Source: Planctomycetaceae bacterium (GTDB lineage: Bacteria; Planctomycetota; Planctomycetia; Planctomycetales; Planctomycetaceae). From it: a stretch of DNA of 64,000 nucleotides. Position 1 is the stretch's first letter. Each line of letters begins with the position of its first letter. This document shows, piece after piece, positions 41,611-47,726 of the stretch. Both the position numbers and the translations under genes were made by a program. Location: positions 1 through 64,000 of the forward strand of contig JAQWSQ010000019.1 of assembly GCA_029243145.1 (NCBI GenBank). Direction: 5' to 3'. The notes below the pieces were generated by a model. It was not told the DNA's origin. It ran no database searches and worked only from the letters and a program-made list of their open reading frames with translations.

Positions 41611-44600
41611 CTAAATGACTTGGAAATCATCGAGATCGGGAGTTTCCGAGTCATCACTTATTTCGGTGGTTGTTGCAGCCGGTTCGGCGCGGACAATTTC
41701 ATCGAGCCATTCGACCTTCGGCATGCCGTAAGGGCGAAACTTTTCAATCGAGCCCATCGAATCGCGATACAATAACGCGCGATTGCGACCGAGTCGGCTG
41801 GCTGCGGGAGAATCAACTAAGTTACTGGAATCGGTCCCCCCCATCTGGAATGCGATGCGGTATTCGAACTCTCTCAATGAATTGCGACTTAACCAGCGAT
41901 CAAAATTATTATAGGAGTGACACCACAGGACGACATAAATGCCGAGCGAAGGCCCGTCTTTCAATATTTCCTGAAAGCGTGCCGAAGGGCTCACGGTTTT
42001 TTCTTTGTCGAAGCCTCCAAATCCAAAATCATCTTCACTCTTCCGCAAGTGCGAAAACTTAGTGATATCGACAATCGTTACGACAACGGGAATAGCGGCA
42101 CGGTCCTCATCGCAGCGGCGCAACTCGATTTCGGTGGTGATCTGTTCGAGAATTTCATCGACTTGGTTGGGCGTCCCAACTTTCAAATGAGACTCGGCAC
42201 GAGCTAACGCCTCCGTCCAACCCTCATTGGTGATGGTTCCCCCATCAAGTAAAAATCCACTCGGGAGATCTTCACAAGAATGGTCGCGATGACTCAGTAA
42301 AGTGAGCAACAACAATCCACTGATGTCGTCTCCATCAGAGCCAACCATGAGCACATTTTGGCCCGGCTGAGCAGACAACGTGAGTGAAGCCGGCTTGCCA
42401 ATGGTGACCGGATCACCCAACCAGAGACGCAGCGGCTCAGTTGGTTTTGTTTCGCCTCGAATTTGAGTCATCAAAGACGGATTGAGAGCAGGGTCGGCGA
42501 GAATATTTCCTTCAAACACAACACATTCGTCATCGGCAAACGAAGCATCGGATTGACGCCTACGGACAGTCGCTTGTTGGATTCGATTGAGCTGTGATTC
42601 CCGTTCCTTGTCTTCCAGCCAGGCAATCTGAAAGGGACTATTCCCCTCCATCATGCCGTTTGCATCATTGTAGATGGCTTCTCCCGGTCGAGTCAGTAAT
42701 CGGGCTGCGGTATTCTCTTCACTCAAGATCAGATGTGCATCCGATTCACTACATTGCAATGCAATACGAACACCCATTTGACTCAAAGTGGTCCGCGCCA
42801 GCGAATAGGCTCCTCCCAATGTTTGGGAACCAAGTAATACGTGGATCCCGAACGCACGACCTTGTCGGACGAGACGGTCCAGCATCAACGTGGCATCTTG
42901 AGCGATACGATCATCTTCGACGAAGAATTCTTGAAATTCGTCGATCATCAAGATCATCCGAGGCATCTTTTGATCGGGATGCTTGTTTTTCCAGCCGGCG
43001 ATGTCCTGGACTCCTGCGTCTCGAAAGAGATCACCCCGTTCTTTCATCACTTCGTCAAGTTTTCGCAGCGCGCTTAAACCGAATTCGCGATCCGATTCGA
43101 TGGCAATGACTCGGGCATGAGGCAATTGATGCGAGGCATACGTTTTGAACTCGACCCCTTTTTTAAAGTCGATCAGATAGAATTCCAATTCATCGGGTGA
43201 ATAAAACAAAGCCGCGTTGGTCACCATGATATGCAGTAACGTCGATTTCCCGGACCCGGTTCGACCGGCAATCAACACATGCTGAGACGTTCCTTTGCCG
43301 AGCCGCAGATGTTGTAATCGTGTCGCACCGGCACGTCCGAGAGGGATGTCGATTCCGTGGCGTGAATCATGGGACCAGAATTCCGCATCGTTGGGAGCAA
43401 TGCGATGAAAGGGAACTTCCACCTTTTTCATCGTCGTGGAAAGCTTCCCGATTTTTTTGACAATCGCGGAAAATTCGGACGGCGCGGGTGATTCGTCGGG
43501 AGAAAGCAATAGCGGCGGTTGACCAAAACTGGATGTCTCAAAATGATCCTTTCTCCAATCGATGACAGTGGCATTTGCCGTGATCGATTCCATCTCAAAG
43601 TCACGTGGCAAATTGCGGCTGGTGTCGTGACTGAGTAACAGATAGACGCCACAACGAGGTCCGCTGCTCGCAATACTGGCGAGACGTTGTGCGGCTCGTT
43701 CGCTGAAGCTTTGCGGAAATCCTGAAACCACCAGCACGCGGTATGGTTCGGCCACTTCCCCAGCATGATCGTTGTATTCTTCGATGTTGGCGAATTGATT
43801 ACGGAGGTACGTCTGGAAGATATTTTCCATATGCTCGGTGAGGTCGGCAAGTTGTTTATCGATTTGATTTGGTTCGGTCCAAATGCGATTGGTGATCAGC
43901 AACTCGTTGTCATCAGTCAGGTGCATGTAGGAAGAAAAGGGCTCTCCCAGCCCCACTGGATCGAGCACAGTGAATCGCAAATTCCCCGGAGAAATACCCG
44001 TCAGCAATCGCAGCATAGCCATCTGTAACAACGCTTCTGCCGCTGATCCACCTTCTGCACCCTCATAGTTCACAATGAACGAAGGCTGTGCCGGGAACGG
44101 CAATGAGGCGGGGACTGTCCAATCCGAATCGTGAGGTGGCAGAAAGTTTTGCGAAGCCGGGCCATCTTCTAAGAAACCGAGCATCGTGCCGAACATGCCC
44201 AACGGAAGGTCGGCGGGAATTGTTTCGGGTGGCTGCCAATCATCGGCAGCGATGCGATTCCAGTCGGTTGGCGGAGCGGCTTGCTCGCCAATTTGTTCAC
44301 AGATTGCGGTCGCCTCGTTGAGTCCGTTCATCCAACCTTGGATGAGTTGATTGCGGGCTGAGTTGATGAGTTCGGTCCGCTGTTGAATTCGTTGAGTGAA
44401 TGCCTCTTGAGCGGTATTAATGGCCGCACTCTTCTTCTTTTTGAGTGAATCAATCTTCTCTTGATAACTGATTTTAATTTCTTGTTTGCTGAGTTCAAAC
44501 TGTGACAGTACGGGCGCCAATGCTGCCTGTCGCACTTCTTCAGCCGCTTTGAGCTTTTCCTGCTGTCGTTCTTCGAGTGATTTAATACGGTCGTCGCGAT

Positions 44601-45621
44601 GTTCTTCGAATTGTTCGATGGAGCGTTCTCGATGTTCCATCAATTTGCGATAGTGCGTTTCATAGATTTCTTCGTGCTTCGCTTGCTCTCGCTCAGAGAT
44701 CGCTTCCCAACGTGTCACGGCAGCACGTACTTGATACAGTCGAGTGACGAATTCTCCATAAGCATCGCGGGTCTGTCGTCGTGAAATATCCCAGCAGATC
44801 AATGCCGTCAGGATGCTGAAAATCGCACCGGCACCTCCCGTGACGGCGTACCAAATGTTTTGATCGATGGTGGAAAAACCAAGTGCGCCGCGGTCCAGAA
44901 ACAGTATTAAACTGCCACCCAAACCTGCGGCCAGAATCAGCATCAATAACAGCAATCGCGGACCAGAAAACCAATATGCAAACTGTTGTTTTTTGAGCGT
45001 TTCGTACGACTTTCGACACTGTTCTTCGGCTTCAAGAAACAGATCGTGCGATTCGCCGGCATTTTTTGATTTTTGAATTTCGCGAGGAGGGGGTTCCGAG
45101 ATGCCGTGGTTGCGACGTTCGACAATTTGCTTGGCTTGACCGCTGAGTTCTTCAAGATGATCTAGTTCGACCCCCATTTCCATGCGCACTTTTTGTTGGC
45201 GATGGATCAAGTTATCGAGTTTGCGTTTCGGGCTCTCTTCGGAATCGTCATCAACAATCGAACTCATCATCCAGCGATTTTGCTGAAATTCGTCCCCGGT
45301 TTGAGTGGCTTCAGATTTGTATTCTGTATTAAGTTGATGAAGGGTGTTGCGGTACTCACCTTCAATTCGATTATTGTCCGTCTCAAAAGTTAGTTCCACT
45401 TGAGAGAGTGCATCGGCTTTTTGATCGTAGACGGTTTGCAGACGAGCCTCAAAATCAGCCGAGATTTGTTCCTGTTCCGTCTCCAGTTGTTGGGGATAAG
45501 GTTGGTCGGCAGCGTTTTCGATGGCTTGAAGATGTGCTTCGTGTTCGAGCCTGCGGCTAACCGTGGCTTGAAGCTGATTCAACAAACTTTCGTATTGTCC
45601 GATCAATGGTGATTCGCTCAT
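41611..45621 (-). CDS. Membrane-anchored FtsK/SpoIIIE-EssC-like secretion ATPase
   Basis: The 1336-residue protein starts with a long coiled coil (about 10-215). Two transmembrane helices follow, near 221-242 and 257-277. A second coiled coil spans about 285-470. Three RecA-like FtsK/SpoIIIE ATPase modules come next. Only the central one has an intact nucleotide site: Walker A GRTGSGKST at 786-794, LIDFKKGVEF, and Walker B MILMIDEFQEFF. The first (about 500-740) and third (about 1060-1320, VLMVGSDGDDISG) lack the Walker lysine. Multi-module architecture, membrane anchor and an operon with WXG100-like proteins match EssC/EccC of type VII secretion rather than the chromosome pump FtsK. Unlike EssC it has no visible forkhead-associated domains. 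The start is ATG 45621 (MSESPLIGQYESLL). Confidence 0.88.
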   Translation of the reverse strand: MSESPLIGQYESLLNQLQATVSRRLEHEAHLQAIENAADQPYPQQLETEQEQISADFEARLQTVYDQKADALSQVELTFETDNNRIEGEYRNTLHQLNTEYKSEATQTGDEFQQNRWMMSSIVDDDSEESPKRKLDNLIHRQQKVRMEMGVELDHLEELSGQAKQIVERRNHGISEPPPREIQKSKNAGESHDLFLEAEEQCRKSYETLKKQQFAYWFSGPRLLLLMLILAAGLGGSLILFLDRGALGFSTIDQNIWYAVTGGAGAIFSILTALICWDISRRQTRDAYGEFVTRLYQVRAAVTRWEAISEREQAKHEEIYETHYRKLMEHRERSIEQFEEHRDDRIKSLEERQQEKLKAAEEVRQAALAPVLSQFELSKQEIKISYQEKIDSLKKKKSAAINTAQEAFTQRIQQRTELINSARNQLIQGWMNGLNEATAICEQIGEQAAPPTDWNRIAADDWQPPETIPADLPLGMFGTMLGFLEDGPASQNFLPPHDSDWTVPASLPFPAQPSFIVNYEGAEGGSAAEALLQMAMLRLLTGISPGNLRFTVLDPVGLGEPFSSYMHLTDDNELLITNRIWTEPNQIDKQLADLTEHMENIFQTYLRNQFANIEEYNDHAGEVAEPYRVLVVSGFPQSFSERAAQRLASIASSGPRCGVYLLLSHDTSRNLPRDFEMESITANATVIDWRKDHFETSSFGQPPLLLSPDESPAPSEFSAIVKKIGKLSTTMKKVEVPFHRIAPNDAEFWSHDSRHGIDIPLGRAGATRLQHLRLGKGTSQHVLIAGRTGSGKSTLLHIMVTNAALFYSPDELEFYLIDFKKGVEFKTYASHQLPHARVIAIESDREFGLSALRKLDEVMKERGDLFRDAGVQDIAGWKNKHPDQKMPRMILMIDEFQEFFVEDDRIAQDATLMLDRLVRQGRAFGIHVLLGSQTLGGAYSLARTTLSQMGVRIALQCSESDAHLILSEENTAARLLTRPGEAIYNDANGMMEGNSPFQIAWLEDKERESQLNRIQQATVRRRQSDASFADDECVVFEGNILADPALNPSLMTQIRGETKPTEPLRLWLGDPVTIGKPASLTLSAQPGQNVLMVGSDGDDISGLLLLTLLSHRDHSCEDLPSGFLLDGGTITNEGWTEALARAESHLKVGTPNQVDEILEQITTEIELRRCDEDRAAIPVVVTIVDITKFSHLRKSEDDFGFGGFDKEKTVSPSARFQEILKDGPSLGIYVVLWCHSYNNFDRWLSRNSLREFEYRIAFQMGGTDSSNLVDSPAASRLGRNRALLYRDSMGSIEKFRPYGMPKVEWLDEIVRAEPAATTTEISDDSETPDLDDFQVI

Positions 45622-45696
45622 CGGGCACCTTGGAGTTTGAGTGTTAATCTCTTGTCTGTCATGGAATGAGGCCCGGCGTCTTTCCGAAATAATTCA

Positions 45697-45942
45697 CTAA
45701 GCATAATCACTTTCACGATCAGGGGCACAATCACGTTGTGCCTGTCGTGTTAAGTCGGACATCCGTTGCATCACCGAGAGGGCATTCGAAAGTTCGGTGA
45801 AGAACGGTTGCAAATGTTCTTTTTCAAATGTCTCGCTGTTGGAATCGGTCCAAGACTCAGCAGTCTCGTTCCAGCCCTCCTCAATACACTCACCGATTTC
45901 GCGAAGACGACCGATGTGCGATGTGAGATCGAAATTTCGCAT
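45697..45942 (-). CDS. Small W-containing helical protein, WXG100-like
   Basis: The 81-residue protein is all helical in appearance. The segment AESWTDSNSETFEKEHLQPF sits between two predicted helices, where WXG100 proteins have their W-x-G turn. Here the turn reads W-T-D, and the pattern of W, D and F with a following amphipathic helix is WXG-like. The start codon lies one base after the stop codon of the coiled-coil gene upstream, so translation is likely coupled. It precedes the EssC-like ATPase by 75 bases. I infer a substrate or partner of the secretion ATPase. The family match is by eye and the protein is short. Confidence 0.7.
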   Translation of the reverse strand: MRNFDLTSHIGRLREIGECIEEGWNETAESWTDSNSETFEKEHLQPFFTELSNALSVMQRMSDLTRQAQRDCAPDRESDYA

Positions 45943-45943
45943 G

Positions 45944-46480
45944 TTATCCTTTCTCGTTCGAGTGCGCAGCGCCGGTTGATTCAGAGTCTGCCGGACTGAC
46001 CGACCGCCCCAGATAATTTTCTAAAGATTGAATCGTTCGTTCGAGCAGTGCGAGTGATTTTTCGAGATCGTTATCAAGAACACCCTGGAATTTCCCCAGT
46101 CGTCCGCGGCACTCTTCGGCTTCTTCGGCGTATTTCCTACTCCATGTTTTGACGTTTTCAACCTTGCGCTCTCCTTCTTGCAATCGTTTCTTGGCTCGTT
46201 CGAATTTCTTCTTTTCGTCAAAACAACTCGAGCGCTGACCGGCCACCGTCCGTAATTTACACGATTCGTATTCTGTGCGTGCTTCGGACATCTGCTCGTA
46301 ACGTCGTTGGAGTTCTTGTTTCCAGGCGAGCGGAAGATCTCCTTCAAACCATTGGACAACGCGATGCATTTCGCGTTTGTAAGTATCGAGCACTTGTGAA
46401 GCACGGTCACGCTGAGTGCGCAGCCCGGCCTGAAAATTGGCAATGGCCTCTACTGATGTGATGTTGGCAGATTCTCCCAC
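45944..46480 (-). CDS. Coiled-coil protein of the WXG100/EssC-like operon
   Basis: The 178-residue protein is almost entirely charged helix. Heptad-like stretches run from about 20 to 165 (LRTQRDRASQVLDTYKREMH, KKKFERAKKRLQEGERKVEN). It has no signal peptide or membrane helix. QWFEGDLPLAWKQELQRRYE near residues 43-62 carries two tryptophans. The tail (SPADSESTGAAHSNEKG) is polar and probably disordered. I do not recognise the family. Position between two WXG-like genes, 25 bases after the first and 1 base before the second, points to a structural or chaperone part of the same module, perhaps an LXG-like scaffold or needle-like helper. Confidence 0.75.
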   Translation of the reverse strand: MGESANITSVEAIANFQAGLRTQRDRASQVLDTYKREMHRVVQWFEGDLPLAWKQELQRRYEQMSEARTEYESCKLRTVAGQRSSCFDEKKKFERAKKRLQEGERKVENVKTWSRKYAEEAEECRGRLGKFQGVLDNDLEKSLALLERTIQSLENYLGRSVSPADSESTGAAHSNEKG

Positions 46481-46505
46481 AGTCTTCTTCTCCTAGAGTC
46501 ACCCT

Positions 46506-46778
46506 TTAGCGTTGCTGAAGATATTCCTCGATCCGATCCGCTTTTCGCAGCAGGAAAGGAATGTACTCGTCATTCACTTCCACGACTCGGGCCATTGATT
46601 TGAGATTCTCTTCGAACTCCTCCGCAAAGCGTTTGTTCTCCTGATCTCGCCAAGAGGACGACAATGACTGCATCTTTCCGGCAAGTGCCGTCATTTGTTC
46701 CTGCAGGCCACCATTGAACTGTTTCAGTTGTTGAGCGAAGCGGCGGAGTTCTTCGGGATTGACGATTGCTTGAGACAT
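46506..46778 (-). CDS. WXG100 family protein
   Basis: The 90-residue protein has the length and layout of WXG100 (ESAT-6-like) proteins: two amphipathic helices with a turn. MSQAIVNPEELRRFAQQLKQ begins helix 1. The turn is at W43-R-D (LSSSWRDQENKRFAEEF), a variant of W-x-G seen in some family members. The second helix ends in IEEYLQQR. It lacks a signal peptide, as expected for a type VII substrate. It is the first gene of the four-gene operon leading to the EssC-like ATPase. A C-terminal YxxxD/E secretion signal is not obvious. It is the most recognisable small protein of the locus. Confidence 0.85.
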   Translation of the reverse strand: MSQAIVNPEELRRFAQQLKQFNGGLQEQMTALAGKMQSLSSSWRDQENKRFAEEFEENLKSMARVVEVNDEYIPFLLRKADRIEEYLQQR

Positions 46779-47045
46779 GAGACACCTGCCCTAAGACGTA
46801 ACCAGAGATGTGACCAGAAAGGATGTTGCCATTCTACGGAGAATCCCCACGTCATGGCAGAGAATTTCCCGTATCTGGTCGAATCTCGCCCTTTATTCCC
46901 GCGATTTGCACATCCTGCGACAGTTGGGATCTCACGTAGTTATTGCGAGAGGCGGATGTGTGAGTCCTCTCTTCGCGCAACAGTATTCGTCACCTACACT
47001 TCCGTTTCATCTTCAGAAATCTTGCGTGAAGGAATTCGGGCCGAC

Positions 47046-47726
47046 ATGGAATCGACCCTGCATCGACAACTCAAAATGCTCTACGCTCCCTCGTCTGACG
47101 AGACGGAAGTGGTCGTTGACGGCTATCGTATCGATGCTATTGCCGATGGAAGATTGATTGAAATTCAAGCGGCGTCACTGTCGTCATTGGCTCCGAAAGT
47201 CAAAATACTTCTGAAGAGTCATTCCTTGACGGTGGTGAAACCGTTGGCAGCCAAGAAATTTATTATCAAGCGGAAAACGCCAGACGGAAAAATTCTCAGC
47301 AAGCGTTATAGTCCCAAGAAAGAATCGCTGTTACATCTCTTCGATGAATTGGTTCACTTCAAAGACATCTTCCCACACGAAAATCTCATCATCGAAATAT
47401 TGCTCACAGAACAGGTGGAGCATCGTGTTCCTAAAAAGAAATCTCGTCGTTGGCGGAAAGATTACCGAGTCATTGATCGCGAATTGACTGAGATTCAACG
47501 CCGGGTTTCGGTGTCATCGCCGGTCGATTTGCTAGGACTACTTCCCGAACTTCCCCAAGAACCATTCACCACGAAAGAAATTGCCGGCTGTTGTTCGGTT
47601 CCGCGGTCGTTGGCGCAAAAAATGGCGTACTGTTTGCGAAAAGCGGGCAGCGTAGAAGTCACCGGAAAAAAAGGGAACGCCATCGAATACTGCTACACAC
47701 CCGGCAGTCTCGATAAAGTTGCCTGA
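47046..47726 (+). CDS. Predicted PD-(D/E)XK-like protein with C-terminal winged-helix-like region
   Basis: From ATG 47046 the protein has 226 residues. The frame is open back to 46695 but that part overlaps the divergent WXG100 gene. VVVDGYRIDAIADGRLIEIQ (residues 22-41) has the D, hydrophobic strand, E-x-Q arrangement of PD-(D/E)XK nuclease folds, with Q in place of the catalytic Lys. A basic segment KKKSRRWRKDYRVID lies mid-protein. The last 70 residues (FTTKEIAGCCSVPRSLAQKM, then AYCLRKAGSVEVTGKKGN) resemble a winged helix-turn-helix. The start is preceded by GAAGGAATTC at a rather long spacing. A DNA-binding or DNA-processing role is inferred; catalysis is doubtful because of the Gln. It is divergent from the secretion operon. 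Confidence 0.6.
   Translation: MESTLHRQLKMLYAPSSDETEVVVDGYRIDAIADGRLIEIQAASLSSLAPKVKILLKSHSLTVVKPLAAKKFIIKRKTPDGKILSKRYSPKKESLLHLFDELVHFKDIFPHENLIIEILLTEQVEHRVPKKKSRRWRKDYRVIDRELTEIQRRVSVSSPVDLLGLLPELPQEPFTTKEIAGCCSVPRSLAQKMAYCLRKAGSVEVTGKKGNAIEYCYTPGSLDKVA

What the first reader, a model, noticed from the sequence alone, without database searches (positions are those of the whole stretch)
41611..46778. Compact four-gene WXG100/EssC-like secretion module in a planctomycete
Genes for a WXG100 protein, a coiled-coil protein, a second W-containing small protein and a 1336-residue FtsK/SpoIIIE-EssC-like membrane ATPase lie in one tight minus-strand operon (gaps 25, 1 and 75 bases). No other recognisable type VII core gene (EsaA, EssB, EccB, EccD, mycosin) is present. 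The sequence shows the order and motifs; that EssC plus WXG100 define type VII systems is established. That this is a minimal, single-membrane-anchor export machine adapted to a diderm planctomycete is my inference.
Basis: partly seen in the sequence, partly recalled or inferred. Interest (0 to 1): 0.78.

Follow-up and report, generated by a model that had tools for sequence, protein, structure and literature searches.

The report
Minimal WXG100/EssC-like module in planctomycetes
Four genes in a planctomycete encode a membrane motor resembling the engine of type VII secretion plus three small helical partner proteins; close relatives always keep or lose all four together, even when scattered around the chromosome, so they form one real machine, belonging to a little-studied group outlined in 2012, whose job here is still unproven.

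Summary
Minus-strand genes WXG (46506-46778), CC (45944-46480), SW (45697-45942) and a 1336-residue ATPase (41611-45621) form a tight operon. The WXG protein passes the Pfam WXG100 cut-off (motif WRD, never WxG). The ATPase is a tandem of three FtsK/EssC-type modules with only the middle one active, plus coiled coils and a transmembrane hairpin.

In 59 relatives the ATPase, CC and SW occur in exactly the same 41 genomes; WXG matches in 40. This holds even where the genes are dispersed (closed genome G005: three sites across 3.4 Mb). The ATPase tree follows taxonomic families, so inheritance looks vertical.

The ATPase is neither an EccC/EssC orthologue nor chromosomal FtsK, but lies in a third clade with plasmid relatives in Caballeronia, Helicobacter, Rhodococcus and Deinococcus; in Helicobacter the CC-like protein ends in a WHH nuclease. 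This group was outlined in 2012 (PMC3482391, table footnote), and H. pylori HP0062/HP0066 is called a minimal type VII set (PMC4978471).

New here: the planctomycete form is chromosomal, apparently vertical, toxin-less in Planctomycetia, membrane-anchored and obligately four-gene. Export is the best-supported explanation but rests on homology alone. New variant of a known kind.

The parts
46506..46778 (-). WXG: 90-aa WXG100-profile protein with WRD motif and a strongly conserved C-terminal end (consensus HIPFLLRKAERIEEYLQQR)
   Evidence: Pfam PF06013 E 1.1e-9; alignment A1; nearest solved structures are H. pylori HP0062, 3fx7 and 2gts
45944..46480 (-). CC: 178-aa protein predicted as a long antiparallel two-helix hairpin (helices 10-76 and 87-158) with a disordered tail; no signal-peptide-like stretch
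   Evidence: AlphaFold2 mean pLDDT 89.7; hydropathy; conserved in all 41 ATPase-bearing relatives
45697..45942 (-). SW: 81-aa small protein with two invariant W and a W-x-D motif, weak profile similarity to WXG
   Evidence: alignment A2; hhalign to WXG probability 71; conserved in all 41 ATPase-bearing relatives
41611..45621 (-). ATPase, 1336 aa: N-terminal coiled coil, TM hairpin, coiled coil, three FtsK/EssC-type modules
44791..44955 (-). two hydrophobic stretches of the ATPase (residues 223-241 and 259-277), predicted TM hairpin
   Evidence: Kyte-Doolittle 19-residue means 2.61 and 1.76; two such stretches in 36 of 41 orthologues
43534..44124 (-). module D1 of the ATPase (about residues 500-696), no Walker A: degenerate
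   Evidence: AlphaFold2 model, alignment A3, no G4GK[ST] outside D2
42532..43422 (-). module D2 (about residues 734-1030), the only one with intact Walker A (GRTGSGKS 786-793) and Walker B (ILMIDE 890-895)
41719..42432 (-). module D3 (about residues 1064-1301), degenerate
   Evidence: domain search and AlphaFold2 model

Best explanation
A single functional machine of the HP0062/HP0066 type, a side branch of the type VII secretion world. SHOWN by sequence: four genes that are kept or lost together; one WXG100-like hairpin protein, one long hairpin protein (CC), one small W-protein (SW) and one ATPase with three FtsK/EssC-like modules of which only the middle has ATPase motifs, carrying a transmembrane hairpin between coiled coils. 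INFERRED: the ATPase forms a hexameric motor in the cytoplasmic membrane; the inactive D1 and D3 act as docking and control modules, as in EccC; WXG (probably a dimer, like HP0062) docks through its strongly conserved C-terminal helix; CC, with SW and WXG as partners, is the protein that is moved. On plasmid relatives the CC position carries toxin-like domains, with an immunity-type gene in one case, which suggests CC is the cargo carrier; in Planctomycetia the carrier is bare, so the three small proteins themselves would be the cargo or would form an envelope structure. How anything would cross the outer membrane is unknown.
For: Identical presence sets for ATPase, CC and SW (41 of 59) and WXG in 40 of them. 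Genes kept while dispersed in closed genomes G005 and G019. Purifying selection. Foldseek top hits of the ATPase model: T. curvata EccC 4nh0 E 1.3e-30 over 969 columns and EccC/EssC ATPases 2+3; VIA-align to EssC 4lya Z 28.7, 489 aligned, rmsd 6.7. TM hairpin in 36 of 41. WXG closest to HP0062 (E 2.7e-9) and S. aureus EsxB (E 2.2e-8) among solved structures. On plasmids, CC-like proteins in the same gene neighbourhood carry C-terminal domains: WHH nuclease E 1.1e-11 in Helicobacter next to an SMI1/KNR4 gene.
Against: No export has been measured. None of the five plasmid ATPase relatives has a clear TM segment before D1, so membrane transport is not a property of the whole clade. VIA-align gives the single best module match to FtsK motors (Z about 31, 275 aligned), so the fold alone does not separate protein from DNA movement. 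No YxxxD/E signal in the WXG C-terminus (0 of 19) and the extended pattern HxxxD/ExxhxxxH in only 9 of 19. No candidate cargo: one copy of each small gene, no LXG protein. No outer-membrane component found.
Confidence: 0.58

Rival explanations
1. Not an exporter: a membrane-attached ATPase complex working inside the cell. WXG, CC and SW are fixed hairpin subunits of a motor that acts on DNA, the membrane or the envelope, as could be the case for related ATPases built into TerY-P and CoCoNuT defence loci.
For: Plasmid relatives lack the TM hairpin; the Caballeronia relative sits in a vWA, CARF, PP2C, kinase and AAA-domain locus, a context described as defensive in PMC11090510; D2 matches FtsK motors best in VIA-align; no cargo found in planctomycetes.
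Against: TM hairpin conserved in planctomycetes; three-module arrangement matches EccC over its whole cytoplasmic part; the CC position carries toxin-like domains in relatives.
Confidence: 0.27
2. Toxin delivery system as on the plasmids: toxins encoded elsewhere use the WXG/CC/SW set as adaptors and are delivered to competitors.
For: Helicobacter plasmid set has a nuclease-bearing CC and an SMI1/KNR4 gene; T7SSb uses small helical partners for toxins (PMC11217815).
Against: No second strong WXG, CC or SW domain protein in 56 of 59 genomes, and in the other three only a second ATPase+CC+SW set; 54 CC proteins from the wider set show no toxin domain by eye or, for the four longest tested, by Pfam; no recurring fifth neighbour gene.
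Confidence: 0.1
3. A decayed or chance gene group, not a functional system.
For: Absent from 18 of 59 relatives; genes dispersed in 13 genomes.
Against: dN/dS 0.02-0.11; exact joint presence; D2 Walker A glycines, lysine and serine invariant in 24 of 24 aligned orthologues.
Confidence: 0.01

Closest known systems
H. pylori HP0062 / HP0066 'WXG100 secretion system' (PMC4978471, PMC3397514)
   Same: WXG-type hairpin dimer with the same WRD motif, clustered with an FtsK/SpoIIIE protein and an HNH nuclease, in a diderm; HP0062 is the best solved match of the planctomycete WXG family.
   Different: No nuclease or toxin in the planctomycete set; planctomycete ATPase has a TM hairpin and long coiled coils. 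HP0066 itself was not compared here; the Helicobacter plasmid homologue (L206) was.
[quoted passage not shown] 2012, PMC3482391, Table 1 footnote 6)
   Same: Same ATPase build, solo WXG, planctomycetes named explicitly.
   Different: The footnote calls these mobile versions of T7SS; here the planctomycete form is chromosomal and its tree follows families.
EssC-like insert of Type III-A CoCoNuTs (PMC11090510)
   Same: Three modules with only D2 active, N-terminal coiled coil, two WXG100-like proteins, a coiled-coil protein; Caballeronia L204 fits this description and groups with the planctomycete ATPase.
   Different: Those ATPases lack TM helices, their coiled-coil protein carries a nuclease-like domain, and they sit in a TerY-P restriction locus.
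T7SSa/T7SSb (EccC/EssC) and T7SSc-j (PMC11217815)
   Same: WXG100 protein plus multi-module membrane FtsK-type ATPase.
   Different: Separate ATPase clade, no EsaB/YukD or EssB in the genome, WRD not WxG, active module is the middle one, diderm host; T7SSc-j are reported only in Gram-positives.

Membership tests
WXG100 family (PF06013) | profile match above curated cut-off | tested here: met
   38.8 bits, cut-off 27.3
WXG100 family (PF06013) | literal W-x-G motif in the hairpin bend | tested here: not met
   0 of 19 W-x-G, 19 of 19 WRD; HP0062 also has WRD (PMC3397514)
WXG100 family (NCBIfam TIGR03930) | score above curated cut-off | tested here: not met
   33.5 bits, cut-off 44.85
T7SSa/b substrate | C-terminal YxxxD/E signal | tested here: not met
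   0 of 19 in the last 40 residues
EccC/EssC equivalog | score above TIGR03924, TIGR03928 or TIGR03925 cut-offs | tested here: not met
   101, 95 and 92 bits against 509, 778 and 347
EccC/EssC equivalog | ATPase falls inside the EccC/EssC clade | tested here: not met
   separate clade with plasmid relatives, support 99/98; long branches, one domain only
EccC/EssC-like architecture | TM hairpin followed by tandem FtsK-type modules | tested here: met
Chromosomal FtsK/SpoIIIE translocase | groups with chromosomal FtsK | tested here: not met
   own FtsK is a different gene (G000:C95) in a separate clade; the sister relation of the two clades is unresolved without a root
Zhang 2012 middle-active YueA-like ATPase with solo WXG | three modules, only the middle with Walker A and B; single WXG protein | tested here: met
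Zhang 2012 middle-active YueA-like ATPase with solo WXG | mobile element | tested here: not met
   ATPase tree: family f1 (22 rows) and f3 (6 rows) each on one side of a branch, 5 label changes against a minimum of 4
Type VII secretion system (functional) | ATP-dependent export of WXG proteins | not testable with these tools
   needs a cultured strain
T7SSb | EssB/YukC and EsaB/YukD present | tested here: not met
   no match in a 97.6% complete genome, B. subtilis control rang
T7SSa | EccB present | tested here: inconclusive
   no match, but no control genome rang

The most novel reading that the evidence does not exclude
In Planctomycetota a T7-like toxin-export module has been tamed into a vertically inherited, membrane-anchored envelope machine whose only cargo is its own three hairpin proteins, which assemble into a periplasmic or surface structure.
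Probability: 0.25. Interest if true: 0.75.

Novelty: new variant of a known kind. Interest (0 to 1): 0.5.

Why it matters
Type VII secretion is studied almost wholly in Gram-positives and mycobacteria. A widespread four-gene set in double-membraned bacteria, kept together by selection even when the genes are scattered, defines a very small natural parts list of this kind and gives a clean system for asking what an EssC-like motor and a WXG protein do without EssB, EsaB or known toxins. It also raises the question of why a motor whose plasmid relatives lack a membrane anchor has one here.

Tried and rejected
(1) Iterated HMM searches made WXG, SW and CC all hit one another; treated as profile drift. 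Direct profile comparison supports only WXG-SW weakly (probability 71), CC-WXG barely (20), CC-SW not (0.5). (2) In-frame TGA flagged in the CC hits of G012 and G018 was checked as possible recoding: the stop lies at the end of the gene, the profile match merely runs past it. Four later SW hits carry the same flag and were not checked. (3) Structure search with the CC model: only coiled-coil look-alikes, no Foldseek match below E 0.001; uninformative. (4) A recurring neighbour in nine loci was only antisense ORFs over the WXG gene; no fifth component. (5) Promoter and terminator scans were at chance level. (7) The EccB search proves nothing because no control rang. (8) Defence reading by PADLOC: SspH and mad8 matches cover only the ATPase domain, so no defence system is called.
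Full report
OBSERVATION. WXG matches Pfam WXG100 above its cut-off but not the stricter NCBIfam model. Its bend motif is WRD in all 19 aligned orthologues; W-x-G never occurs. The ATPase matches FtsK_SpoIIIE, best over residues 756-963. EccC and EssC models score best in NCBIfam yet far below their cut-offs. SW matches no family and CC only sub-threshold coiled-coil models.

ATPASE ANATOMY. Residues of about 1-215 and 280-430 look like coiled coil by sequence pattern (not measured by a dedicated program). Two hydrophobic stretches at 223-241 and 259-277 suggest a TM hairpin. Two such stretches are present in 36 of 41 planctomycete orthologues, one in four, none in one. Only one P-loop exists, GRTGSGKS at 786. 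An AlphaFold2 model of residues 440-1336 (mean pLDDT 83) shows three modules in a row. Foldseek places it first with the whole cytoplasmic part of T. curvata EccC (4nh0, E 1.3e-30, 969 columns) and then EccC/EssC ATPases 2+3. VIA-align gives FtsK motors the top Z (31, about 275 residues) for the single active module, and EssC 4lya Z 28.7 over 489 residues. So the fold supports an EccC-like build but does not decide between protein and DNA as the thing moved.

CONSERVATION. In 59 class relatives the full-length ATPase occurs in 41 genomes. Profile searches with CC and SW hit exactly the same 41. WXG hits 41, of which 40 are shared. The two exceptions are a 78% complete genome (G015, WXG only) and one whose ATPase and CC/SW lie at contig ends (G037). 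Identical sets of 41 of 59 are very unlikely for independent genes, though relatedness of the genomes makes the true number less extreme. In 26 genomes the four genes are contiguous, in two more they are cut by contig ends, and in 13 they are dispersed. Closed genome G005 has WXG at 2.50 Mb, CC and SW at 4.30 Mb and the ATPase at 5.92 Mb; closed genome G019 has the ATPase 0.7 Mb from the other three. Each small gene is single copy, except that G046, G050 and G058 have a second ATPase, CC and SW set without a second WXG; one further weak WXG-profile hit in G002 (E 0.004) was not followed. Four genes that need not be neighbours but are kept or lost together most likely act together.

INHERITANCE AND SELECTION. 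An ATPase tree of 41 sequences separates taxonomic families with five label changes against a minimum of four. This points to vertical descent with losses, not a mobile element; a species tree was not built for comparison. Within the genus, dN/dS is 0.02-0.11 where dS can be measured. No fifth gene recurs beside the locus beyond families abundant in planctomycetes.

WIDER FAMILY. A scan of named genomes kept the 80 best loci: almost all Planctomycetota (Planctomycetia and Phycisphaerae), one labelled Alphaproteobacteria and one unassigned. Only the best 80 of 490 relatives are listed, so weaker matches in other phyla cannot be excluded. WXG was found in 30 of 246 phylum-wide genomes. On plasmids the nearest ATPases are not EccC but FtsK/SpoIIIE proteins of Rhodococcus, Caballeronia, Deinococcus and Helicobacter. 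A tree of the active module puts these with the planctomycete ATPases (99/98), apart from EccC/EssC and from FtsK; branches are long and the root is unknown. Near each plasmid ATPase there is a WXG-like protein (clear in four loci, weak in L207) and a coiled-coil protein. In Helicobacter the latter ends in a WHH nuclease next to an SMI1/KNR4 gene. Caballeronia and both Rhodococcus loci also have long C-terminal domains there, without a Pfam match; calling those toxins is inference from pattern. None of the five plasmid ATPases has a clear TM segment ahead of D1.

PLANCTOMYCETE CC. In Planctomycetia, CC is mostly about 165-240 aa, usually with a disordered tail, and is predicted as a long two-helix hairpin (pLDDT 90). 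In a few longer cases, mainly Phycisphaerae, a C-terminal Imm33-like domain follows (PF24719, L173 and L176 above cut-off, L192 just below). No toxin domain was recognised in 54 CC proteins; only four of these were run against Pfam, the rest were read by eye.

PRIOR KNOWLEDGE. Zhang et al. 2012 (PMC3482391) already note in a table footnote that planctomycetes and others have solo WXG domains with a distinct ATPase of three modules, only the middle active, 'mobile versions of T7SS'. The CoCoNuT paper (PMC11090510) describes the same ATPase type without TM helices plus WXG100 proteins and a coiled-coil nuclease, and predicts secretion by a different mechanism. PMC4978471 calls WXG and FtsK of H. 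pylori (HP0062, HP0066) a minimal type VII set. PMC3397514 reports HP0062 as a hairpin dimer with WRD. HP0062 is the best solved match of the planctomycete WXG profile (E 2.7e-9). T7SSc-j are reported only in Gram-positives (PMC11217815). I found no paper that studies the planctomycete system itself; the library holds open-licence papers only.

MECHANISM. Shown: gene set, co-occurrence, one module with intact ATPase motifs, predicted TM hairpin, hairpin partners. Inferred: membrane hexamer; docking of WXG by its conserved C-terminus; CC as the moved protein; export across the inner membrane. The canonical YxxxD/E signal is absent (0 of 19) and the extended C-terminal pattern is present in only 9 of 19. 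With no cargo gene found, either the three small proteins are the cargo, or the complex works inside the cell.

VERDICT. Real, conserved and under selection; the type is already outlined in the literature. The chromosomal, apparently vertical, toxin-less, membrane-anchored planctomycete form with a strict four-gene set is a new variant. Interest 0.5.

Noticed in passing
L173 3867-4931, L176 4305-5288, L192 1581-2603: CC proteins, mainly of Phycisphaerae, carry a C-terminal Imm33-like domain (PF24719), an immunity-type domain fused to the presumed carrier.
   Followed up: partly
G046, G050, G058 (loci L071, L044, L053): A second ATPase+CC+SW set without a second WXG gene; these ATPases form their own subclade.
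   Followed up: partly
L203 7492-11460: Rhodococcus plasmid ATPase whose N-terminus looks TerD-like by eye, beside CC-, SW- and WXG-like genes and annotated TerD genes.
   Followed up: no
L206 7030-8441: Helicobacter plasmid: coiled-coil protein with WHH nuclease followed by an SMI1/KNR4 gene within the WXG/FtsK set, a likely toxin and immunity pair.
   Followed up: partly
L205 8243-8671 and L207 11379-11990: Deinococcus and Rhodococcus plasmids encode a separate small helical protein with one C-terminal hydrophobic segment next to the ATPase, possibly replacing the TM hairpin.
   Followed up: no
window 46695-47726: Divergent plus-strand ORF (343 aa) beside the operon, found at this place only within the genus; function unknown, weak winged-helix hits.
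   Followed up: no
L191: Locus labelled Alphaproteobacteria (SP218) with the full WXG, CC, SW and ATPase set; its ATPase groups with a Phycisphaerales sequence, so the label may be wrong or it is a transfer.
   Followed up: no
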